A DNA stretch of 64,000 nt, from positions 2,567,595 to 2,631,594 of the forward strand of contig JAWPMO010000001.1 in assembly GCA_033344875.1 (NCBI GenBank), read 5' to 3'. The stretch comes from Ilumatobacteraceae bacterium (GTDB taxonomy: Bacteria; Actinomycetota; Acidimicrobiia; Acidimicrobiales; Ilumatobacteraceae). The notes under the pieces are model-generated. The model did no database searches. It saw only the letters and a program-made list of their open reading frames with translations, and was not told where the DNA came from. The translations under genes were made by a program, and so were the position numbers. Positions 17,366 through 47,621 of the stretch are shown one piece after another (position 1 is the stretch's first letter; each line of letters begins with the position of its first letter).

Positions 17366-17411
17366 TGGTGGCGGGGGCAGGATTTGAATCTGCGACCTTC
17401 GGGTTTATGAG
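17366..17411 (-). repeat. tRNA-fMet 3' fragment 1 (old attachment site)
   Basis: This is a copy of the tRNA-fMet 3' half (CCA end, T arm, anticodon loop) with one substitution in the T arm (gaatct for gaacct) and one inserted T before the anticodon. It lacks the 5' half and cannot be a tRNA. It marks the left edge of element A and the right edge of an older element whose integrase is the pseudogene at 16464-17227. The mutations suggest it is the oldest of the three copies. Confidence 0.8.
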
Positions 17412-32740: not shown

Positions 32741-32787
32741 TGGTGGCGGGGGCAGGATTTGAACCTGCGACCTTCGGGTTATGAGCC
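32741..32787 (-). repeat. tRNA-fMet 3' fragment 2 (attachment site between elements A and B)
   Basis: An exact 47-bp copy of 47545-47591, running from the CCA end through the T arm to the anticodon loop of tRNA-fMet. The 5' half is missing, so it is not a functional tRNA. It is the left attachment site of element B and the right one of element A. Exact identity implies recent formation or ongoing recombination. Confidence 0.9.
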
Positions 32788-32902
32788 GTGGAAAGGCCAT
32801 ATCGACTGGTGTCGATTCGTGTCATTTTGTGCCATCTAGCTGGTGTTTCGCGAGACCGACGTGTCAGCTGGTGTTCGTTGATAGCAGCGTCAGCCGGGCC
32901 GT

Positions 32903-32924
32903 CCGTTAGAAGATCCGTTAGAAG
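32903..32924 (+). repeat. tandem CCGTTAGAAG repeats near the left end of element B
   Basis: Two direct copies (32903-32912 and 32915-32924), 12 bp apart start to start, about 115 bp inside the left att. The same 24-bp block (gtccgttagaag plus atccgttagaag) recurs exactly at 47465-47488 at the right end. They are candidate arm-type integrase sites. Confidence 0.65.
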
Positions 32925-32997: not shown

Positions 32998-33642
32998 ATG
33001 CCGACTATGGTGTCGATCATGGACTTCGTTCATCCCGTGCAGGCGGTGATCCCGGGCGCTCAAGGCAGAGTGCTCGCCGTACTCGCCGAGGCGACGGCCG
33101 AGTTCAACCTCCGCACTCTGGCGCGCGTCGCTGGTATCAGCGTCGCCCAGGCATCCCGGGTGATGCCAGGACTCGTGGAGTTGGGCCTCGTCGCGCGACG
33201 CGAGGTTCCGCCGTCATCGCAGTTTCGACTGATCCGTGAGAATGTGGCCGCGCAGGCAATCGTCCAGCTCGCAAGGTCGAGAGACAGGGCGCTGACTCAG
33301 ATCGCTGATTCAGCGACCGCGCTCGCGCCATCGCCGGTCAGCGTCATCGTGTTCGGATCGTTCGCGCGTGGTGAGGCTGACGAGCAAAGTGACCTCGATG
33401 TCATCGTCGTTAGACCTGACGAGATCGCCGACGACGACGATGCCTGGGCGGCAGCGATCGAGCAATGGCGCAACGAAGCTCGCGCGATCACCGGCAACGA
33501 GGTCGAGGTCCTGGAGATCGCTCGCGACCAGATGCCGGCCAGACTCGAGAGTGGATCGACCCTGTGGCGCGACGTGGTTCGCGACGGCGTCGTCATCCAC
33601 GGCCTCGCGCTCGATGAACTGAATCCGGTGGCTCGTGTCTAA
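32998..33642 (+). CDS. MNT-type nucleotidyltransferase antitoxin with N-terminal HTH
   Basis: A protein of about 214 residues (ATG 32998; 33007 and 33019 are alternatives). The first 75 residues form a winged helix (FNLRTLARVAGISVAQASRV, LVELGLVARREV). The second half is a minimal nucleotidyltransferase with the signature GSFARGEADEQSDLDVIVV, i.e. GSx10DxD. In known MNT-HEPN systems such a protein AMPylates and silences the HEPN RNase. The added HTH suggests it also represses its own promoter. It overlaps the HEPN gene by 8 bp. Confidence 0.87.
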   Translation: MPTMVSIMDFVHPVQAVIPGAQGRVLAVLAEATAEFNLRTLARVAGISVAQASRVMPGLVELGLVARREVPPSSQFRLIRENVAAQAIVQLARSRDRALTQIADSATALAPSPVSVIVFGSFARGEADEQSDLDVIVVRPDEIADDDDAWAAAIEQWRNEARAITGNEVEVLEIARDQMPARLESGSTLWRDVVRDGVVIHGLALDELNPVARV

Positions 33643-36723: not shown

Positions 36724-36832
36724 GCTCATGGCGTTCACCGCTCAGAGCACCTGCCGCGACGTGATTCGAGCCGACCAGTGAGCGCTCGGCTGCGTCTCCG
36801 CGCGAGTGAGTCCGGCGGGCCACAATAGGCGT

Positions 36833-37837
36833 GTGCCTCGCGACGACTTCTCTGCAGGCGTGAAGGAGCAGCTCGCCAAGCGAGTGGGCTACCGGTGTTC
36901 AGCACCATTCTGTCGTGCGCCGACGGTAGGACCGTCTGACTCGCGTCGAACCGGAACCTCAAACGTGGGTGTCGCTGCCCACATCACCGGTGCGGCGGAG
37001 GGGTCGGCGCGGTGGAACGCCACGCTCACCAGGCCGCAGCGGCGGTCGCTCGACAACGGGATCTGGCTCTGCCAGACGCACGGCAAATTGGTGGACGACG
37101 ACGAGGTGCGATTCTGCAAGGAGTTGCTGCACGCTTGGCGCGGCAGGGCTGAGGATCTGGCGCGAATGCAGCTGGGAGCGCCGACATTCGGCAATCACGG
37201 TCTACTCATACACAGCCGGGCGCTCTCAGACCCAGCTGCACTCCATAGTGAGATTGATGAGTTCCTGTTGGACGTCGGAGCTAGGGAGGTATGGGGCGTG
37301 GATCTGACGGACTCGGTCCGTCTCGCACTCTTCGAGGTCGCTCAGAATGACCTTGAGCACGGCGGAGCTACCGGACTTAGCTTCTCATCGACCGAGGGCG
37401 CAGTGACAGTTCGATCAAACGCTCCACCGTTCGGAGTCCAAGATCTCATCACCAGCGCCGTTGGACGCGGCGGGCGCGCCGCTGTCGAGGCTCTGCTTCG
37501 CGTGGCCGAGGGCCTCGTGGACCTTGTGTACCGCCACGACGGCAGCTCGGAGTGGTCTGTGATCACGGTTGACGGCTTCGACGGAGACCGGCCGTGCTGT
37601 ATCTCGATGGATCGGAATTGGACTGCGGACGCTCTCGACGAGCTCGAGCTCGCTATTGCGGGCTGTGAACAGATTCACGTGTATGCCCCTCGGTTATTCG
37701 CATTCAGCGACGCGCGTCGGGTCGCGGCGCCCCTCGAACCCTTGTTGGACGGACGCCAAGTTGTTGTGCACGGGATTCGAGACAGTGGGCTTCGCGACTG
37801 GGTATCGACCATATGGCCCGATGCCTACTTTCGCTGA
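36833..37837 (+). CDS. HNH-nuclease-like protein with a GHKL-ATPase-like C-terminal half
   Basis: A 334-residue protein (GTG 36833; 36806 possible). The N-terminal 110 residues match a cysteine-rich HNH module: GYRCSAPFC at 19-27, VAAHITGAAEGS at 47-58, NGIWLCQTHGKLVDDD at 75-90. The second half contains LALFEVAQNDLEHGGATGLSFS, where Glu168/Asn172/His176 look like the N box of GHKL ATPases, then VRSNAPPFG and GRGGRAAVEALL where the glycine-rich lid would be. The GHKL assignment is tentative. A nuclease tied to an ATP-binding sensor fits phage defence. It stands alone between two boundary repeats. Confidence 0.65.
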   Translation: MPRDDFSAGVKEQLAKRVGYRCSAPFCRAPTVGPSDSRRTGTSNVGVAAHITGAAEGSARWNATLTRPQRRSLDNGIWLCQTHGKLVDDDEVRFCKELLHAWRGRAEDLARMQLGAPTFGNHGLLIHSRALSDPAALHSEIDEFLLDVGAREVWGVDLTDSVRLALFEVAQNDLEHGGATGLSFSSTEGAVTVRSNAPPFGVQDLITSAVGRGGRAAVEALLRVAEGLVDLVYRHDGSSEWSVITVDGFDGDRPCCISMDRNWTADALDELELAIAGCEQIHVYAPRLFAFSDARRVAAPLEPLLDGRQVVVHGIRDSGLRDWVSTIWPDAYFR

Positions 37838-38997: not shown

Positions 38998-41766
38998 CTA
39001 CCTGCCCGGTAGTGGGATGTCGGGCGGCCGCGGTCCATCCGCTGTCTGCCTCATTCGGGACCACTGGTCGAGGATCCTCCGCGATGCGGCGAAACGGTCT
39101 GGTAGCTCCGGTTCTGCCGGCACGGACGGATCGGCGTCTTCGCCTGGTCGCTCCCCCGAGGGCGGCGCCTCGGAAATCTGGGGTTGGAGTCCTAGCGCAG
39201 GTTCATCGCCGAAACCATGAGTGCTTGCATCTCCGCTCAGTTCGGCTTGGCGGGCGAGGGCGGGGCGGTCGATCCAGTCGGTTGCGATCGATTGGGTGAT
39301 GACGTCGAGGGCGGTGATTTCGCCGCTCGTCGCGACGAAGGCTTCGTTCGACTTTCTGCCTCTCGTCATGGGGACGTACAGATTCCTCACGTCGGTCGGG
39401 CTGTCGAGGTACAGGATGCCGGCGTCGACGGTTCGGCCTTGGGCACCTGCGCCAGTTCGCGCGTAGGCGAGATCGACGTGTTCGGTCACGTACTCGTACG
39501 GCAGGCGGGCGGTTCCGTTTCGTCCCTCCACGGTGATCGAGCGATCGCGGTGGACTGCGACAACCGTCCACTCGGCGCGGTTGCGGACCATCTCGCCTCG
39601 GTCTGTGAGTAGACGTCGATCGTTCTGTCGAGTCGCCACCTCGTCACCGACGAAGATCGCGTTCGTCCCGACGCTGACGCCGCGACTTGTCGCGTCGATC
39701 TCGCGGGCGAGGATTCGGCGGCGTTGGCAGAGTTGGTTGAGGTGGTCGACGATCTCGTTGGTCGGCGTCATCAGTAGCGGGGTCTGGCCGGCTTGGCGTT
39801 CGTCCCACCAGCGGTCGACGGCCATCTGTCGCATCCGTTGCGGTGAGCCGCCGTGGAGTCGCCCGTGCTTGTCGTACAGGTCGGCGACGTCGACGTCTGA
39901 TCGGCGCAGCCGCAGGCTTGCGTCGCGTTCCCATTCGTTGTCGAATCGGTGGACTCGTTCGAGTTCGACGGCGCCGCACGATTCGATCAGCAGCTCGAAC
40001 ATGCCGCCTCGACCGACCGCCGAGAATTGCAACGGGTCGCCGACCAACGCAACGCGCCAGTGGCGACGGTCCGCCAGTCGGGCCAGCTCGTCGAGCTTGG
40101 GTGTGGGAACCATGCCGGCCTCGTCGACGATCAACGTCGTTCCTGCTGGTAGGTCGTAGCGGTGATCGGGTGGCCGGTCGAGTCGATGCTCGATCAAAAG
40201 CTTGTCGATCGTGTCGGCCGCGACTCCGGTCTCGTGTTCGAGTACCTCGGCGGCCACCGCCGAAGGAGCGATCCCGAACACCGGACGACCCGCTCGCCTC
40301 AATGCCGAAACCGCTGGCCGCAGCGCCGTTGTCTTGCCGGTGCCGGCCGGGCCGACGATCAACACGAGATCGTCGCGTCCGGCGACCCGACCGGCGGCCT
40401 CGGCCTGCGCCACATTGAGGTCGATGTCGGACTCGTCGACGAGACCGACCCGGCCGATGTCATTGTTAGATCGCGTCGCGGCCCAGGCGAGCAGGTCGTG
40501 CTCTTGGTCGAGGATCGCTTGGGTCGTGAAGGCGCGGTCGACGGCTGACTCGCTGACCGGGCGACCGTCCTTGCGAAGCAACGAGCCCGGAGCGACAGGC
40601 TTCGAGATATCAACACATCGGGTGTCGACGATCTGCACCGCGACCCTGTCCAGATCACTCACGAGCTGGCCGGCCGGGACCGCGAGATCCGTCGGCAGCG
40701 CAGCCGTCAACTCGCGATGAACCTCGGTCGGCCGCCAGCTCGACTGTCGGTCGGTGAGCGCGGCGATCGAGAGCTCACAGACGTCGCGAACCTCCTCCGG
40801 GTCCAGTCGCGATCGTCCATTCAGTTGGTCGATGGCGCCGTCGACGATGTCGTCGGGCGAGTAGCCGAGTTCGCACGCCGAAGCGAACCACTCGTCGTGG
40901 AGCGACTCCGCATCGATAGCAACACCCTTGCCCGGGCGGCTGTCGAGTACCGCTTCGCGTTCGAGCTTCCACCGTTCCCGAGGCGTCGGGTCGCGGTCCA
41001 TGTTCGCGACGAAACGTTCGAGCTTCTCGTCGGTCCGCTGACGAATGCTCGCCGTCCGGCTCGAGAACTGCTCGAGGACAATGTCGTTCATGTCGCCGAT
41101 CTCGGCGATGCCGTTCTCCGGGCCGTGCCAACGCACGCCGAGCCTGGCCGTGAGTTCCGATCGAAGTGCGGCGTGGTACAGCGCCGACAGCGTCCGTTGA
41201 TCGCGCTTGATCAGACGAGCGTCGAGCGCGAGCCATCGCCCGTCGGGTGACTTCACTCGATTCGGGATCACGACGTGTGTGTGGAGCTGTGGGTCGAGCG
41301 CTCGGCTCGTGTGCTGCCGGAACGCAGCGACCACGATCCCCTCGGCATCGACGACCGCCACCTCGCCACCGATCCGGTAGCGGGTGTGCGCGTGGCTTTC
41401 GATCCACCCGGCGAGCGCGGCGACGGAGCTGTCGTGCGCGTCGATCGCCTCGTAGCGAACCCGATCGTCACCGAGTGCGAACAGCACGGACACCGACTTC
41501 GGCGCCGAGCACGTCACGTCGAACCCGCGCACCGAGCTGTCGCCGTAGCTGCGCCCAAGATCTCGGCCCGGATCGTTCGGGTCGAGACCGGCCATCAGAT
41601 CGAGGAACGCCTCGTCGCCGACCTCACCGCGCAGCCCGAGCATCGACGCGCCACGCCCGAGCCACACTCCACTCGGCTCGCTGGAGTCGAGGTAGTAGTT
41701 CGGAAGTCGGTCGACGTAGTAGCCGCCCGCGTCAATCCCCTTGAGCGTCGTCACTCGCACCGTCAT
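38998..41766 (-). CDS. MobF-family conjugative relaxase-helicase (TrwC/TraI-like)
   Basis: A 922-residue relaxase. The N-terminal TrwC domain has the catalytic tyrosine pair in GIDAGGYYVDRLPNYYLD, FDVTCSAPKSVSVLFALG and the metal-binding PQLHTHVVIPNRV. The middle-to-C-terminal half is a RecD2-like helicase with P-loop LIVGPAGTGKTTAL, LIVDEAGMVPT and RHWRVALVGDPLQFSAVGRGG. It nicks at the element's oriT and unwinds the transferred strand. ATG 41766 (MTVRVTTLKG) is chosen as it begins the domain. No coupling protein or type IV secretion genes accompany it, so it relies on a helper element. Confidence 0.93.
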   Translation of the reverse strand: MTVRVTTLKGIDAGGYYVDRLPNYYLDSSEPSGVWLGRGASMLGLRGEVGDEAFLDLMAGLDPNDPGRDLGRSYGDSSVRGFDVTCSAPKSVSVLFALGDDRVRYEAIDAHDSSVAALAGWIESHAHTRYRIGGEVAVVDAEGIVVAAFRQHTSRALDPQLHTHVVIPNRVKSPDGRWLALDARLIKRDQRTLSALYHAALRSELTARLGVRWHGPENGIAEIGDMNDIVLEQFSSRTASIRQRTDEKLERFVANMDRDPTPRERWKLEREAVLDSRPGKGVAIDAESLHDEWFASACELGYSPDDIVDGAIDQLNGRSRLDPEEVRDVCELSIAALTDRQSSWRPTEVHRELTAALPTDLAVPAGQLVSDLDRVAVQIVDTRCVDISKPVAPGSLLRKDGRPVSESAVDRAFTTQAILDQEHDLLAWAATRSNNDIGRVGLVDESDIDLNVAQAEAAGRVAGRDDLVLIVGPAGTGKTTALRPAVSALRRAGRPVFGIAPSAVAAEVLEHETGVAADTIDKLLIEHRLDRPPDHRYDLPAGTTLIVDEAGMVPTPKLDELARLADRRHWRVALVGDPLQFSAVGRGGMFELLIESCGAVELERVHRFDNEWERDASLRLRRSDVDVADLYDKHGRLHGGSPQRMRQMAVDRWWDERQAGQTPLLMTPTNEIVDHLNQLCQRRRILAREIDATSRGVSVGTNAIFVGDEVATRQNDRRLLTDRGEMVRNRAEWTVVAVHRDRSITVEGRNGTARLPYEYVTEHVDLAYARTGAGAQGRTVDAGILYLDSPTDVRNLYVPMTRGRKSNEAFVATSGEITALDVITQSIATDWIDRPALARQAELSGDASTHGFGDEPALGLQPQISEAPPSGERPGEDADPSVPAEPELPDRFAASRRILDQWSRMRQTADGPRPPDIPLPGR

Positions 41767-41857
41767 CGCGACCGCCTCCGGCTCAGATCGACTGTGCACT
41801 CGTCTGTACTGGTTGGGCAGTTCGGGTTCGACGTTGGGTGATTGTGCATGGGTGCTC

Positions 41858-42461: not shown

Positions 42462-43613
42462 ATGAGGGGTCACATCGCGAAGAAGGGCAACCGCTACTAC
42501 GCCGTTGTGTACGAGGGGTTCGACCCGACGAACGGCAAGGAACGACACCGCTGGTACGCCGCCGGCGAGACTCGCAAGGGCGCCGAGAAGGTGTTGAACG
42601 AGATCGTCAAGCGGATGCACGACGGCGACTACCGATCGCCGGAACGCGTCACCCTCGGCGACTACCTCGCCGAACGATGGTTGCCGACGAAGAAGGCACA
42701 ACTCCGGCCGTCGACGTTCGCGTCGTACCGCAACAACGTCGACATCCACATCAACCCGCGGATCGGCCACATCCTCCTGCAGAAGCTCCAACCCGAAGAT
42801 CTCGACACCTTCTACGCCCAACTGCTCTTCGACGGGCGACGCAACGGCAAGGGCGGCGGCCTCGCGCCGAAGACCGTGCGGATCATCCACGGCATCATCC
42901 GCAAGGCGCTCGCCGACGCCCACCGCAAGGGCACGGTCACCCGCAACGTCGCCGACCTGGCTGACCCCCCGAAGGTGCGAGTCGGTGGATCCCGAGAGAT
43001 GACGATCTGGTCAGCCGACGAGCTGCGCGAGTTCCTCGCCGGCATCGAGGGCACCGAGTGGTTCGTGCCGATCTATCTATCCGCCAACACCGGCATGCGA
43101 CGCGGCGAGGTGCTCGGTCTGCCGTGGCGCAACGTCGACCTCGACGCTGCTCGCCTCGTCGTTGACCAGCAGATCCTGTCGGTCGAGTACGGCACGAGCG
43201 TCGCCGACGTGAAGACGATGAACAGTCGCCGCACGATCGACCTGGACCGGCGGACGGTCGCCGTGCTGCGATCGTGGTGCCGTCAGCAACTCGAGCAGCA
43301 GATGAGCACCGGCCGCCGCGACGAGGACGGTTTCGTGTTCACGCGCCCCGACGGCGAGCCGATCCACCCCGACTTCTTCTCGCAGTCGTGGAAACGGCTG
43401 GTACGCGAGAGCGGCGTACGGCGAATCCGCCTCCACGACCTCCGCCACACCCACGCCTCGATCCTGTTGAAGGCCAACGTCCCCGTGAAAGTCGTCAGCG
43501 AACGCCTCGGCCACAGCAGCCCAGCGTTCACGATGACCGTCTACCAACACGTCCTCCCCGGCATGCAAGCCGACGCCGCAGCCGCCTTCGGCAATGCGGT
43601 GTTTGGCGACTAG
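42462..43613 (+). CDS. tyrosine-recombinase integrase of element B
   Basis: A 383-residue phage-type integrase. An N-terminal Arm-binding region (HIAKKGNRYYAVVYEG) and a SAM-like core-binding domain (TLGDYLAERWLP) precede the catalytic domain with Arg213 (NTGMRRGEVLGL), Lys251, His326-x-x-Arg329 (HDLRHTHAS), His351 (GHSSPAF) and nucleophile Tyr361 (YQHVLPGM). All catalytic residues are present. It is predicted to recombine the 47-bp tRNA-fMet 3' end. The TAG stop lies inside the IS481 target duplication, yet the original frame and stop are preserved. caggag serves as ribosome-binding site. Confidence 0.95.
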   Translation: MRGHIAKKGNRYYAVVYEGFDPTNGKERHRWYAAGETRKGAEKVLNEIVKRMHDGDYRSPERVTLGDYLAERWLPTKKAQLRPSTFASYRNNVDIHINPRIGHILLQKLQPEDLDTFYAQLLFDGRRNGKGGGLAPKTVRIIHGIIRKALADAHRKGTVTRNVADLADPPKVRVGGSREMTIWSADELREFLAGIEGTEWFVPIYLSANTGMRRGEVLGLPWRNVDLDAARLVVDQQILSVEYGTSVADVKTMNSRRTIDLDRRTVAVLRSWCRQQLEQQMSTGRRDEDGFVFTRPDGEPIHPDFFSQSWKRLVRESGVRRIRLHDLRHTHASILLKANVPVKVVSERLGHSSPAFTMTVYQHVLPGMQADAAAAFGNAVFGD

Positions 43614-43614
43614 C
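43609..43614. repeat. IS481 target duplication, left copy (ACTAGC)
   Basis: Six bases directly before the IS end; the right copy is 44703-44708. It fits the NCTAGN target preference known for IS481. It contains the TAG stop of the integrase (43611-43613, plus strand) and the TAG stop of the transposase (43612-43610, minus strand). Confidence 0.9.
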
Positions 43615-44584
43615 TGTGCATGACGGGGACGTTGTCCTTGAGCGTGTCGATTGGTGTTGACCATCCGAGTGCGCCGTGTGCTCGGTGGTGATTGTAGAAG
43701 TGCACGAAGTGGTCGTACTCGACTGAGCGTTCGTCGTCGCTGTGCCAGTCGCGGATGTAGGCCCATTCCTCGAGCAGGATTCGGTGAAAGCGTTCGATCT
43801 TGCCGTTGGTCTGGGGTCGGAACGGTCGTGTCCGTTTCGGGGTGATCCCGGCAGCGAGCAGCGTGTCTCGCCACAGGTGACTCTTGTAGCAGGACCCGTT
43901 GTCGGTCAGCACTCGTTCGACGGTGATGCCGTGAGCGTTGAACCAGGTGTTCGCTCGGTGCCAGAAGGCGACGGCGGTGACGGCTTGTTCGTTGGCGTGG
44001 ATCTCGGAGTAGACGAGGCGGGTGCGGTCATCGAGCGCCGAGTGCAGGAACCTGTAACCGGTAGTTGACCGTTTCGCCGTGGGGGCGTTGCCTTTGCCGT
44101 GGATTCGCCAACCGCCACCGTCGGGGATGCCAGCGAGTTTCTTGACGTCGACGTGGACCAGCTCACCGGGCCGATCGCGCTGATAGCGCACGACCGAGTC
44201 CTTGGTGGCACGATCACCGGAGTCGAGCCGGCCAAGACCCTCGGCGATGAGGATCTTCTGCACCGTGGAACTGGCCCGACCAACCTCGAACCCGATGTGG
44301 GCAGCACCCCACCGATGCTGTTGACGCAGCTCGATGATCCGCCGCCGACAATCATCAGGTGTTGCGCTCGGAGAACGGTGCGGCCGCGACGAACGATCCA
44401 ACAAACCCGACGACCCTTCGGCGACGAACCGGTCCCGCCACTTCCGAACTGTCTTCGCGTCGACCTGGAACCGTTCCGCAGTGGCTTCGATCGTCCAGCC
44501 CCGATCGATCACACAGGCAATCATCTTGCGGCGACCGAGCGGTGTCAGTGACGCGTTCGGGTGTTGGGTTCTAGCGTGTCCCAT
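43610..44584 (-). CDS. IS481-family transposase
   Basis: A 324-residue DDE transposase. The HTH region is GRRKMIACVIDRGWTIEATAERF with VDAKTVRKWRDRF; a second wing follows (SPSATPDDCRRRII). The catalytic acids are in VHVDVKKLAGI (D), VLTDNGSCYKS (D) and TNGKIERFHRILLEEWAY (E). ATG 44584 with ggag upstream is preferred over the longer start at 44623. The stop codon TAG is supplied by the CTAG of the duplicated target, as known for IS481. It looks intact. Confidence 0.95.
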   Translation of the reverse strand: MGHARTQHPNASLTPLGRRKMIACVIDRGWTIEATAERFQVDAKTVRKWRDRFVAEGSSGLLDRSSRPHRSPSATPDDCRRRIIELRQQHRWGAAHIGFEVGRASSTVQKILIAEGLGRLDSGDRATKDSVVRYQRDRPGELVHVDVKKLAGIPDGGGWRIHGKGNAPTAKRSTTGYRFLHSALDDRTRLVYSEIHANEQAVTAVAFWHRANTWFNAHGITVERVLTDNGSCYKSHLWRDTLLAAGITPKRTRPFRPQTNGKIERFHRILLEEWAYIRDWHSDDERSVEYDHFVHFYNHHRAHGALGWSTPIDTLKDNVPVMHS

Positions 44585-44702
44585 CGAGCTCTCCTTGCGA
44601 GTGGTGTGCGTTGTCGAAGACACACAGCCTCGCTCGGAGGGCTCACCTATTCAGCGGACCAACAATCCCATCCCGCCAGGGACAACGTTCCCGGTCATCA
44701 CA
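43615..44702. mobile_element. complete IS481-family insertion sequence
   Basis: A 1,088-bp element with imperfect terminal inverted repeats: left tgtgcatgacggggacgttg, right end (reverse-complemented) tgtgatgaccgggaacgttg. The 6-bp target duplication is perfect, so it is a clean insertion. It sits between the stop codons of the integrase and the beta-family gene, which before insertion were adjacent and convergent. Confidence 0.92.
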
Positions 44703-44708
44703 ACTAGC

Positions 44709-45779
44709 TCACGCCGCCGGGCTGAGCTCCTCAGCGACGGAAGTGAAGTGATGGATGAAGCCCGCGCGCCGGTACTGCGTCGGATTGCCGCCCCGTCCCG
44801 CTCGGGCGCGCTCCGCAAGAAAGCCGCATCCTTCGCAGTGGTTCGCGCCACGCCACACATCCAACTCGACGAGTTCCGCTGACAGCCTCGCGTAGTCGTC
44901 AGACGCTGCCTTCTTTCGACTGAACCCTCGCTTGACCAACCACGTAGTGGTGTCGGTGTATCGCAGATTGGCCGACCCTGGGTAGGGCGTTTCATCTTGG
45001 TCGCCTGCCATGAGGATTCCGTAGTCGCCGAATCTCACTTGGTCGCTGCCACTGCGACCGGCGTCGACCTGGAGCCAAACCATCCGCTCGGCACGAGGGA
45101 ATACAGCAAGATCGTTGTAGCCCATCACCTTCGATAGCTCGGCAGGAAATGAGCCAGCGACAAGCGAGACCGAGTGCCAGGACGTCAACGGGGCAAGGCG
45201 CTCAATGCATCCAAGTGCGGTGCTCGACGTCATGAACGTGCTGTTGGCGTCAACATGCTGGAGGTCCAGGACCAGGTCGACAGAGGACTTGGGAAGATCC
45301 AACTCTCGAAGCAGGACCGCAGCACCATCGTTGCCAGCGAACAGGTCCTGGTCTCGTAGGCGTATGGCCGCCCTTCCGCCAAAATGGCGAACCCACCTGG
45401 CCGCAGCCTGGCGGTATTCAGCGCTGCGCTGCCTGCTCGTGACCACGACAACGCGCAATCCGGCGTCTGCGCACCGCTGCATCGCATAGTCGAGCGGATG
45501 AGTTCTTAAATCGAAGACCCGAGGGTCCAGCTGCCGACCATCGATCATCACTTCCTCATCGGAACCCCAACAACCGAGAATGCCGTCTGCCGGATCCGTC
45601 AGACGTTTGGTGAGTATCGACTCCGGCGTCCACGTCGGTCGGGCGTTGTCGGGCCGACGTGGATTCCTTAGGTCCACGAGGGGCAGCATCAGAGTACGGC
45701 ACTGAGCGGGCAGGCTAGCCAGGGCGTGAAGTTCCGCCTGCTTGTCCCCGATGATCGGTATGTACTTTAGATCCGACAC
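44709..45779 (-). CDS. beta-family protein (T4 beta-protein-like), partner of the kinase
   Basis: A 356-residue protein. The opening VSDLKYIPIIGDKQAELHAL and TLMLPLVDLRNPRRP match the beta-family proteins named after phage T4, followed by VVVVTSRQRS, SVDLVLDLQHVD and SVSLVAGSFPAEL in a TIM-barrel-like alternation. A C-terminal CEGC pair could bind zinc. GTG 45779 is preferred to GTG 45785 because agagg then has proper spacing. It follows the kinase by 10 bp, so the two are one operon. Function in bacteria is unknown, though homologues are often found in defence islands. Confidence 0.75.
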   Translation of the reverse strand: MSDLKYIPIIGDKQAELHALASLPAQCRTLMLPLVDLRNPRRPDNARPTWTPESILTKRLTDPADGILGCWGSDEEVMIDGRQLDPRVFDLRTHPLDYAMQRCADAGLRVVVVTSRQRSAEYRQAAARWVRHFGGRAAIRLRDQDLFAGNDGAAVLLRELDLPKSSVDLVLDLQHVDANSTFMTSSTALGCIERLAPLTSWHSVSLVAGSFPAELSKVMGYNDLAVFPRAERMVWLQVDAGRSGSDQVRFGDYGILMAGDQDETPYPGSANLRYTDTTTWLVKRGFSRKKAASDDYARLSAELVELDVWRGANHCEGCGFLAERARAGRGGNPTQYRRAGFIHHFTSVAEELSPAA

Positions 45780-45789
45780 GTTCACCTCT

Positions 45790-47343
45790 TTAGCTATTCA
45801 GCTTCTCGCGACCTTCGGCAGCCACAAGCCTCATCTTGAGCACTGCGTCGCGCACAACGGGGTGAAGACTCTTGGCGGCGAACTCGCTGATTGTGGCATC
45901 CACGGCTCGAGCGCTGCATCCACGGACAGCGTCCGCTGCGGCTGCCGCCTGGTCGGGTTCTCTAATGCGCTGCAGAACCTCGACCGCGACGCTATTTACG
46001 TGCCATCGGTTGTGTGCGTAGCCCATCTCTACAAGCGCTCCGACCGAGGTACCGAGAATTCCTGCATCATTGGTGACCAGTACAACGCGATCGAAGAAGT
46101 TGGCGACTTGGTCACAGAAGCCGAAAGGGAGCTGTGCGTCCCGGATATAGGCGCCGTATCGATCGACTACCCGCACCAAGCCCTCTCTGTCCATGTTCCA
46201 CAATTGCTCAAGAGCTCCGTGCGACATTGTGGCGATGGCTCCGCGCAAAGCAGCGACCACCTCGCGCCCATCATCGACGCTCACGAGGTCCACAAGTTCC
46301 GCTAGTGCAGATGGGGCAGGCACCTCAAGGGCAAGCGCTTCTTCAAGACCGGCTGCGCGATCCTCCGGCGAGAGCCACTTGCCGGGCGAGGACACTGCTC
46401 TTTCGACAGCGACCACGAACTCATCGACGGACGCGTACCGATCTTCTATTCGCTGACGCGTCGCCTTTGCGATCACATGCCTGAATAGGCCATCGGGTGG
46501 GTCGACTTCGATTGGGACCTCTCCTGTGACCAGATTCTGCAGCAGCTTGCCCAGGCTGTAGATATCGGCCGGAGCAGTGGCGCACTTCGCACCGCGCCAT
46601 GACTCAGGGGCGGCGAAGAAGTAGGTGCCGACGCCCTGAAGCGTCGATGTGAGGGCGGTCGACTTTCTCTCGGCCTCTCGCGCTAGACCAAAGTCTGAGA
46701 TCGCCCACGTGTCAGTTCCGACTCTGAGCACGTTCGCAGGCTTCAGGTCGCGGTGGAAGATGCCGCGGTCGTGCGCGTATTTGACGCCAGCACAGACTTG
46801 ACGTAGCACGTGGACGATCCGTTCGTCGTTCCCGACGAACCGATCGGTCTCCTCGTCCAAGCTTCCCTGTGCTAACGGCATGGCGTACCACAGCCGACCA
46901 AGTTCATCCTCTCCGTCGTCCAAGATCGACACGACGTTGGGATGAGAACAGTCAGCGATAAGCCTGAGTTCCCTCATGAATCGACGGCGGACCTCCACGT
47001 CCTCGAGCTCCCGGAGAAGCTTGATCGCGACAACCCCATGGGGTTCCGCCTCCTGGCGCTTCAGGTCGACGGCCCGGTAGACGTCCGCGAATCCGCCGTC
47101 GCCGATTGGCTCTTTGTCCAGCAGGTACCGGTCGGAAAAAAGCTGCCGTCGGGTTGCGGGCCTACCGGCGCTTCGCCTCAGCCCCGACCCGCTCCACAAT
47201 GCGACCTGATCAAGGTCCCAGATCGCGCCGGCCGCGATCTCGCCGACCGGATCAGGAAACCCTGGTTGGTCTCGAACCTGCGAAAGGCGCTGTCGAGAGA
47301 TCCCGAGTTCTAGAGCAACCTCGGTGGCTCCGCCTAGGCGCAT
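45790..47343 (-). CDS. HTH - Ser/Thr protein kinase fusion
   Basis: A 517-residue protein. Residues 5-50 form a DNA-binding HTH (TEVALELGISRQRLSQVRDQ, AIWDLDQVALW). A Hanks kinase spans about 72-340: GDGGFADVYRA (81-91), Lys108 in VAIKLL, HRDLKPANVL (197-206), DFGLARE (217-223) and FAAPESW. The C-terminal 170 residues are helical without a known domain. All catalytic residues are present. ATG 47343 has ggagg eight bases upstream; a TTG at 47358 is less likely. Two TTGAC-N5-GTCAA dyads upstream suggest autoregulation by its HTH. It is the first gene of a two-gene operon with the beta-family gene. Confidence 0.88.
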   Translation of the reverse strand: MRLGGATEVALELGISRQRLSQVRDQPGFPDPVGEIAAGAIWDLDQVALWSGSGLRRSAGRPATRRQLFSDRYLLDKEPIGDGGFADVYRAVDLKRQEAEPHGVVAIKLLRELEDVEVRRRFMRELRLIADCSHPNVVSILDDGEDELGRLWYAMPLAQGSLDEETDRFVGNDERIVHVLRQVCAGVKYAHDRGIFHRDLKPANVLRVGTDTWAISDFGLAREAERKSTALTSTLQGVGTYFFAAPESWRGAKCATAPADIYSLGKLLQNLVTGEVPIEVDPPDGLFRHVIAKATRQRIEDRYASVDEFVVAVERAVSSPGKWLSPEDRAAGLEEALALEVPAPSALAELVDLVSVDDGREVVAALRGAIATMSHGALEQLWNMDREGLVRVVDRYGAYIRDAQLPFGFCDQVANFFDRVVLVTNDAGILGTSVGALVEMGYAHNRWHVNSVAVEVLQRIREPDQAAAAADAVRGCSARAVDATISEFAAKSLHPVVRDAVLKMRLVAAEGREKLNS

Positions 47344-47362
47344 TCTAATCGCCTCCAAATCA

Positions 47363-47405
47363 TTGACATGACGTCAACATATTCGAAACGTTGACGAGGT
47401 GTCAA
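47363..47405. promoter_or_regulatory. two TTGAC-N5-GTCAA operator dyads
   Basis: Dyads at 47363-47377 and 47391-47405, 28 bp start to start, lie 20-62 bp upstream of the kinase start. The N5 spacers differ, so the shared arms are meaningful. They are best explained as operators for the kinase's own N-terminal HTH. Confidence 0.6.
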
Positions 47406-47455: not shown

Positions 47456-47488
47456 CTTCTAACGGTCCGTTAGAAGATCCGTTAGAAG
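47456..47488. repeat. CCGTTAGAAG repeats near the right end of element B
   Basis: One inverted copy (cttctaacgg, 47456-47465) and two direct copies (47467-47476, 47479-47488). The direct pair is identical over 24 bp to the pair at 32901-32924. They lie 57 bp from the tRNA and are candidate arm-type integrase sites. Confidence 0.65.

Positions 47489-47544: not shown

Positions 47545-47621
<77 letters not shown>

What the first reader, a model, noticed from the sequence alone, without database searches (positions are those of the whole stretch)
44709..47405. HTH-kinase plus beta-family protein: candidate two-gene defence system
A protein with an N-terminal DNA-binding HTH fused to a complete Hanks kinase is followed after 10 bp by a T4-beta-like protein, at the edge of an integrative element next to the att site, where defence genes tend to gather. 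Two TTGAC-N5-GTCAA dyads in the promoter suggest that the kinase represses its own operon and is released on activation. I know of no described system with this pair.
Basis: partly seen in the sequence, partly recalled or inferred. Interest (0 to 1): 0.7.

Follow-up and report, generated by a model that had tools for sequence, protein, structure and literature searches.

The report
DNA-binding kinase operon, probable phage defence
A bacterial mobile element carries a two-gene operon, a protein kinase with its own DNA-binding domain and a protein of a family required by one known anti-phage system; the kinase and its promoter sites are conserved elsewhere, but the pairing was seen only here.

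Summary
On the minus strand an HTH-kinase (45790-47343) and a Beta-family protein (44709-45779) form an operon at the tRNA-Met end of a 14.8-kb integrative element, with two exact TTGAC-N5-GTCAA dyads in the promoter.

For: Beta is PF14350 and best matches PADLOC's PD-Lambda-2_C, a protein needed for defence in E. coli. Three other HTH-kinases (two further lineages, 43-45% identical) carry the same tandem operators (0 of 5000 shuffles each). Two of the three lie near known or candidate defence genes.

Against: the pair was not conserved. Beta was found by 0 of 18 kinase relatives, and this kinase type by 0 of 38 other Beta genes. Beta's neighbour was sce7726 in 7 of 8 loci outside one family. 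The "T4" link found no support.

The more interesting part is the kinase clade: AlpA-like HTH, Hanks kinase and an unnamed C-terminal helical domain (FxxCD...HNRWxV). Nine of 15 relatives without the HTH sit beside a phosphatase gene; no phosphatase was found by the 4 HTH-kinases. I propose that self-repression replaced phosphatase restraint. No function was tested.

The parts
45790..47343 (-). HTH-kinase, 517 aa from ATG (ORF 45790-47358 from TTG): AlpA-like HTH (about residues 5-50), Hanks Ser/Thr kinase (66-318), C-terminal helical domain (about 326-516) with FxxCD and HNRWxV
   Evidence: Pfam Pkinase 3e-36; HTH profile vs AlpA structure 8c3t E=5e-4; AlphaFold mean pLDDT 80, kinase domain aligns to PknB, Z 27.7, rmsd 2.0 over 232 residues; C-terminal F, C, D, H, N, R, V invariant in 13 aligned sequences, W in 12
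44709..45779 (-). Beta-family protein, 356-358 aa
   Evidence: PF14350 7e-42; PADLOC PD-Lambda-2_C 5e-29; phrog_9159 7e-41
47391..47405 (.). distal operator dyad TTGAC-N5-GTCAA
   Evidence: aligned with relatives; by eye it contains a -35-like TTGACA
47363..47377 (.). proximal operator dyad TTGAC-N5-GTCAA, beginning 34 nt before the kinase ATG
47545..47621 (-). tRNA-Met (CAT), integration site
47545..47591 (.). att repeat, right copy (47 bp)
32741..32787 (.). att repeat, left copy (47 bp)
47465..47488 (.). 24-bp repeat GTCCGTTAGAAGATCCGTTAGAAG, also at 32901-32924: probable integrase arm sites (inferred)
42462..43613 (+). tyrosine integrase of the element
   Evidence: Phage_integrase 4e-24; phrog_1 3e-72
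43610..44707 (.). IS481-family element (transposase 43610-44623, -) between the 3' ends of integrase and Beta, with CTAG at both ends
   Evidence: 31-bp ends 74% complementary; junctions
38998..41799 (-). TrwC-like relaxase: the element may be mobilisable
   Evidence: TrwC 6e-71

Best explanation
The locus is a defence operon carried as cargo by a 14.8-kb integrative element. The first protein is a DNA-binding kinase that restrains itself: its AlpA-like HTH, probably as a dimer, binds two tandem 15-bp dyads over its own promoter and keeps kinase and Beta low. On infection a phage cue, probably read by the C-terminal helical domain, switches the kinase on. Phosphorylation of itself loosens the HTH from the operator and raises operon output, and phosphorylation of cell proteins stops growth before the phage is made (abortive infection, as for Stk2 and KKP kinases). 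Beta is a co-expressed accessory, taking the place that PD-lambda-2C has beside a HigBA-like pair. Shown by sequence: the domains, intact catalytic residues, operon layout, conserved tandem operators, mobile setting, family assignments. Inferred: DNA binding, release by phosphorylation, the phage trigger, growth arrest, and Beta's dependence on the kinase.
For: Beta best matches PADLOC PD-Lambda-2_C; [quoted passage not shown] The HTH profile matches AlpA. All four HTH-kinases have two TTK-N9-CAA dyads 28-29 bp apart start to start; 0 of 5000 dinucleotide shuffles for each promoter. L046 and L050 are 95.8% identical, so this is three lineages; L051 fits only with TTT for TTG in its distal dyad. 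Genome-wide, TTGACN5GTCAA occurs six times, two of them here. Context: the L046 kinase lies about 0.5 kb before PDC-S54 (2e-131); the L051 kinase is followed by a UvrD-like helicase and lies about 3 kb after a type IIG restriction enzyme (7e-258). Nine of 15 relatives without the HTH have a PP2C or metallophosphatase neighbour, all nine over Pfam's cut-off, while the profiles made from these nine found none by the four HTH-kinases, so a different restraint is plausible. KKP shows a kinase as toxin and phosphatase as antitoxin (PMC11341870, abstract and passages).
Against: No functional test. The pair occurs once: 0 of 18 kinase relatives have Beta in the DNA held and 0 of 38 Beta loci have such a kinase. 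L050 lies after a Mg-chelatase-family gene beside integrase-like genes; its only PADLOC lead worth naming is a weak candidate about 6.5 kb on (PDC-M63A 1e-11). PADLOC matches of the kinase (PD-T4-6, mad6) cover mostly the kinase domain, which any Hanks kinase would match. AlpA proteins often regulate mobile elements rather than defence (recalled). The 30 Beta loci of one actinobacterial family had no sce7726, kinase or M78-repressor match within their flanks, so Beta may work alone.
Confidence: 0.5

Rival explanations
1. Two independent defence genes that happen to share a cargo slot and a promoter: a stand-alone self-repressing kinase (Stk2-like in action) and a stand-alone Beta protein.
For: The kinase type occurs without Beta in 18 of 18 relatives and Beta without the kinase in 38 of 38 other loci; the genes downstream of other HTH-kinases differ (PDC-S54, integrase-like genes, UvrD helicase).
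Against: The 4-10 nt spacing with a Shine-Dalgarno inside the gap indicates co-transcription; PD-lambda-2C was studied as part of a three-gene system (PMC9519451, passages).
Confidence: 0.3
2. The HTH-kinase is a regulator of the mobile element (an AlpA-type excision or transfer switch under phosphorylation control), and Beta is a phage-exclusion or helper gene.
For: The HTH resembles AlpA (weakly); the operators lie between the gene and the probable integrase arm sites at 47465-47488; the L050 kinase lies beside integrase-like genes and L046 beside what looks by eye like a remnant of the same transposon; KKP controls co-resident prophages as well as defence (PMC11341870, abstract).
Against: No tRNA gene was found in L046, L050 or L051; none of the three L051 neighbours scanned with Pfam is an integrase; the dyads sit at the kinase's own promoter in all four loci.
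Confidence: 0.12
3. A housekeeping or stress kinase without a defence role, carried along by chance.
For: Hanks kinases are common: 95 of 396 genomes of the phylum match the protein at E<=1e-30, nearly all through the kinase domain.
Against: The clade is rare and patchy (0 of 147 other genomes of the order for its C-terminal domain); the window element and L050 show integrase genes, and L046 and L051 lie near defence genes.
Confidence: 0.08

Closest known systems
PD-lambda-2 (Vassallo et al. 2022, PMC9519451)
   Same: Carries a protein of the same family as this Beta as third gene (PADLOC profile); two upstream partners, one with an HTH.
   Different: Partners there are a HigB-like toxin and a HigA-like HTH-peptidase; here a single HTH-kinase. 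No M78-type repressor next to it and no sce7726 ORF in the window.
Stk2 of staphylococci (Depardieu et al. 2016; recalled, and cited in PMC9519451 and PMC11341870)
   Same: Single-locus anti-phage Hanks kinase; the PADLOC Stk2 profile runs on into the C-terminal domain of L046 and L051.
   Different: In the window protein the match ends near residue 323; no Stk2 sequence was compared directly; HTH and self-operator are not part of Stk2 as far as I recall.
KKP kinase-kinase-phosphatase (Guo et al. 2024, PMC11341870)
   Same: Kinase as toxin in mobile elements; five relatives of our kinase are paired with PP2C.
   Different: KKP has two kinases and a PP2C antitoxin; here one kinase with a fused HTH and no phosphatase ORF found in the window by profiles of the relatives' phosphatases.
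RptR, repressor of a defence island (PMC12255303, abstract read)
   Same: Repression of a defence operon's promoter through repeated sites.
   Different: RptR is a separate small repressor binding a 6-bp palindrome; here the DNA-binding domain is fused to the presumed effector kinase.
PADLOC PD-T4-6 and mad6 kinases
   Same: Best PADLOC profile matches of the kinase domain.
   Different: The matches cover little beyond the kinase domain; a shared C-terminal domain was not shown.

Membership tests
Beta_protein, PF14350 | profile match over the gathering score | tested here: met
   144.5 bits against a cut-off of 27, profile 1-341 of 342
PD-lambda-2 | Beta-like component C | tested here: met
   PD-Lambda-2_C 5e-29
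PD-lambda-2 | HigB-like A and HigA-M78 B upstream | tested here: not met
   The upstream gene is an HTH-kinase; no match to the M78 repressor of L006 in the 4-kb stretch L001
Hanks-type Ser/Thr kinase | kinase fold with intact catalytic residues | tested here: met
AlpA-like HTH | sequence match to AlpA | tested here: inconclusive
   Profile of four vs 8c3t E=5e-4; Phage_AlpA only 0.0044 for L051, below Pfam's cut-off, and no AlpA match for the window or L046 HTH alone
Stk2 defence kinase | full-length similarity including C-terminal part | tested here: inconclusive
   PADLOC Stk2 profile to residue 462 in L046 and 456 in L051, but to residue 323 in the window protein
KKP module | PP2C followed by two kinases | tested here: not met
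   One kinase in the operon; no PP2C or metallophosphatase ORF in the window at E<=10 by profiles built from relatives' phosphatases
self-repressed operon | protein binds and represses its own promoter | not testable with these tools
   Only conserved tandem dyads shown
anti-phage system | protects cells from phage | not testable with these tools
   -

The most novel reading that the evidence does not exclude
A one-protein switch for immunity: a kinase that sits as repressor on its own promoter and, when a phage activates it, phosphorylates itself off the DNA, so that sensing, signal amplification and toxicity are one molecule, replacing the phosphatase antitoxin used by its relatives; and a Beta protein has been recruited from PD-lambda-2-like systems as its downstream partner, making the kinase-Beta pair a new two-gene system.
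Probability: 0.25. Interest if true: 0.7.

Novelty: new variant of a known kind. Interest (0 to 1): 0.45.

Why it matters
Kinase-based phage defence is known from few systems (Stk2, KKP, and a Ser/Thr kinase among those of Vassallo et al.), and how such toxic kinases are kept quiet is an open point. This clade suggests a testable answer: the kinase is its own repressor. It also places a Beta protein, needed for PD-lambda-2 in a way not known to me, beside a different kind of partner, which may help to learn what Beta does.

Tried and rejected
Conserved kinase-Beta pairing: looked for from the kinase side (18 related loci) and the Beta side (38 loci); not found. The 30 Beta loci of the family of G128 were 30 of 37 match rows (loci are capped at 30) and carry only about 1.5 kb of flank, so a distant kinase would be missed. 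Neighbours in the plasmid collection were judged by annotated names only.

Lost sce7726 partner under the IS: rejected, because with one CTAG taken as the insertion duplicate the stop codons of integrase and Beta would have been about one base apart, and no sce7726 ORF is in the window.

The 409-aa neighbour of the L046 kinase as a distant Beta: rejected (hhalign probability 0.1%); it is PDC-S54.

HTH-kinases in the family of G128: the full-length query was swamped by other kinases (0 of 249, uninformative); the C-terminal query gave 1 of 249, a partial match in a 437-aa frame, probably a member without the HTH (neighbours not examined).

Structure of Beta: two-sequence alignment, mean pLDDT 42. 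The alternating strand-helix pattern hints at a barrel but is too weak to use; the single BFVD match at E<=0.001 is an uncharacterised protein of Gordonia phage Powerball, a phage that also holds a Beta relative by tblastn. C-terminal kinase domain: no PDB sequence match at E<=1, and the fold comparison tested mainly residues 66-328, so its fold stays open.

Viral contigs: seven scans gave one wider kinase relative (L062), one tiny Beta fragment (L004, not pursued) and 25 near-identical E. coli Rac-type Betas, of which only L101 was used.

Empty site in a congener: left unclear; the tRNA copy and the right flank lie apart in G031.

Literature: PF14350 is named in 0 papers of the library. No listing showed a paper on this pair, but several listed only part of their hits (20 of 383, 20 of 54, 10 of 255) and the library is open-licence only, so 'not described' is weak.

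Full report
WHAT IS THERE. The two genes are real and lie as described. The kinase ORF (45790-47358, minus strand) has an intact Hanks kinase domain (Pkinase 3e-36); by comparison with its homologues it starts at the ATG at 47343. Beta (44709-45779 or 45785) matches PF14350 over nearly the whole profile. Stop and start are 4 or 10 nt apart with AGAGG between them, so one transcript is likely. Two dyads TTGAC-N5-GTCAA at 47363-47377 and 47391-47405 are the only ones in the window (expected 0.01) and two of six in the 4.97-Mb genome (control pattern: one).

SETTING. A 47-bp exact repeat at 32741-32787 and 47545-47591, the second inside tRNA-Met, bounds a 14.8-kb element with a tyrosine integrase and a TrwC-like relaxase and a lower G+C than the rest of the window (63.6 against 68.1%). 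A 24-bp repeat near both ends looks like integrase arm sites (inferred). The operon lies between integrase and att site. An IS481 element with CTAG at both ends sits exactly between the 3' ends of integrase and Beta, so no gene seems to have been lost there.

BETA. In PADLOC its best match is PD-Lambda-2_C (5e-29). In Vassallo et al. (PMC9519451, passages read) PD-lambda-2 is a HigB-like protein, a HigA-like HTH-peptidase and a third component related to a P4 phage antitoxin; the third is not needed to neutralise the toxin but is needed for defence. Of 38 Beta loci other than the window's (8 outside that family, 30 inside), none had a match to this kinase's profile. All 8 but one (L002) had an sce7726 gene convergent with and overlapping Beta; 0 of the 30 did; 2 of 38 had an M78-type repressor gene near by, one of them the query itself.

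THE KINASE CLADE. Three other kinases share the whole architecture at 43-45% identity: L046 (Streptomyces sp. CdTB01 plasmid), L050 (Streptomyces sp. MMG1533) and L051 (Serinibacter arcticus); L046 and L050 are 95.8% identical, so there are three lineages. The N-terminal HTH profile matches an AlpA structure (8c3t, 5e-4), though single HTHs match Pfam's AlpA weakly or not at all. The kinase domain aligns to M. tuberculosis PknB at Z 27.7, rmsd 2.0 over 232 residues. The C-terminal domain is predicted helical, and the ten-residue blocks from 411 to 510 all have a mean pLDDT of 88 or more. F407, C410, D411, H444, N445, R446 and V449 are invariant in the 13 sequences aligned, W447 in 12; Pfam gives that region of the window protein and of L050 no name.

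THE OPERATORS. All four promoters carry two dyads of the form TTK-N9-CAA, 28 or 29 bp apart start to start. In the window, L046 and L050 the proximal one begins 34 nt before the start codon; in L051 39 nt before it. No shuffle of 5000 gave such a pair for any of the four promoters. L051 fits only if its distal dyad may begin TTT. By eye, a -35-like TTGAC lies in the distal dyad and a -10-like sequence at the edge of the proximal one (alignment), which suits repression. This is the best evidence that the HTH acts on its own gene; binding is not shown.

NEIGHBOURS OF RELATIVES. The L046 kinase lies about 0.5 kb before a PDC-S54 candidate defence gene (2e-131), both between two pieces of a dpdA-like gene. 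L050 lies after an apparently truncated Mg-chelatase-family gene, beside integrase-like genes; a DUF6932 protein 6.5 kb on matches candidate family PDC-M63A weakly (1e-11), and four other L050 proteins gave no defence match better than 7e-4. L051 is followed by a UvrD-like helicase and lies 3 kb after a type IIG restriction enzyme-methyltransferase (7e-258), itself preceded by a helicase fragment resembling BREX and DISARM helicases. Fifteen wider relatives without the HTH were also read (L042, L047-L049, L052-L062): five have a PP2C gene next to them and four a metallophosphatase, all nine over Pfam's cut-off; six have neither by these profiles. None of the four HTH-kinase loci has a match to the phosphatase profiles, and none of the 18 relatives has Beta, in the DNA held.

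HOW IT MOST LIKELY WORKS. KKP (PMC11341870, abstract and passages) shows the principle: a toxic kinase held down by a phosphatase and freed by a phage protein. The phosphatase-linked relatives here may work that way. In the HTH clade no phosphatase was found and the kinase carries a putative repressor domain and tandem operators, so restraint by transcription is the simplest replacement, with release when the kinase phosphorylates itself. Beta would be an accessory or second effector. I give the defence role about 0.65, self-repression about 0.65, and real dependence of Beta and kinase on each other about 0.35; these are judgements.

VERDICT. Observation confirmed; interpretation partly supported. 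The pair is not a conserved system on present evidence. The self-repressing kinase clade is the part worth a specialist's time: a new variant of a known kind. PF14350 is named in no paper of the library, and no listing I saw showed this pair (some listing only part of their hits), in an open-licence library only.

Noticed in passing
L003, L005, L006, L007, L008, L009, L044: Beta is convergent with an sce7726-family gene, the 3' ends overlapping, in 7 of 8 loci outside one family; by annotation, Agrobacterium, Rhizobium and Sinorhizobium plasmids have XRE regulator, Beta and sce7726 together. This looks like a further gene of PD-lambda-2-like loci.
   Followed up: partly
L006:4336-4728; L050:14855-15361: DUF6932 proteins: the first gene of the PD-lambda-2-like operon on a Marinibacterium plasmid and a gene 6.5 kb from the L050 HTH-kinase.
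   Followed up: no
window 17366-17390: A third copy, one mismatch, of the first 25 bases of the att repeat lies 15.4 kb left of the left att repeat; a second or older element may lie in tandem.
   Followed up: no
window 36806-37837: N-terminal part resembles candidate defence proteins and PADLOC endonuclease effectors (PDC-M68A 1e-18); possibly another defence gene in the same element.
   Followed up: no
window 32998-33642: Weak match to candidate defence family PDC-M05A (1e-12), just inside the left att repeat.
   Followed up: no
L053, L054, L055, L060: In four loci the kinase relative is preceded by an overlapping or abutting calcineurin-like phosphatase gene, a second kind of kinase-phosphatase pair beside the PP2C kind.
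   Followed up: partly
genome G000 C1:2207393, 3782909, 4592086, 4851646: The four other TTGACN5GTCAA sites of the genome; possible further targets of the HTH, neighbours not read.
   Followed up: no
L046:6693-10878: A dpdA-like gene is split by an insert carrying the HTH-kinase, a PDC-S54 gene and, by eye, a transposon-protein remnant.
   Followed up: partly
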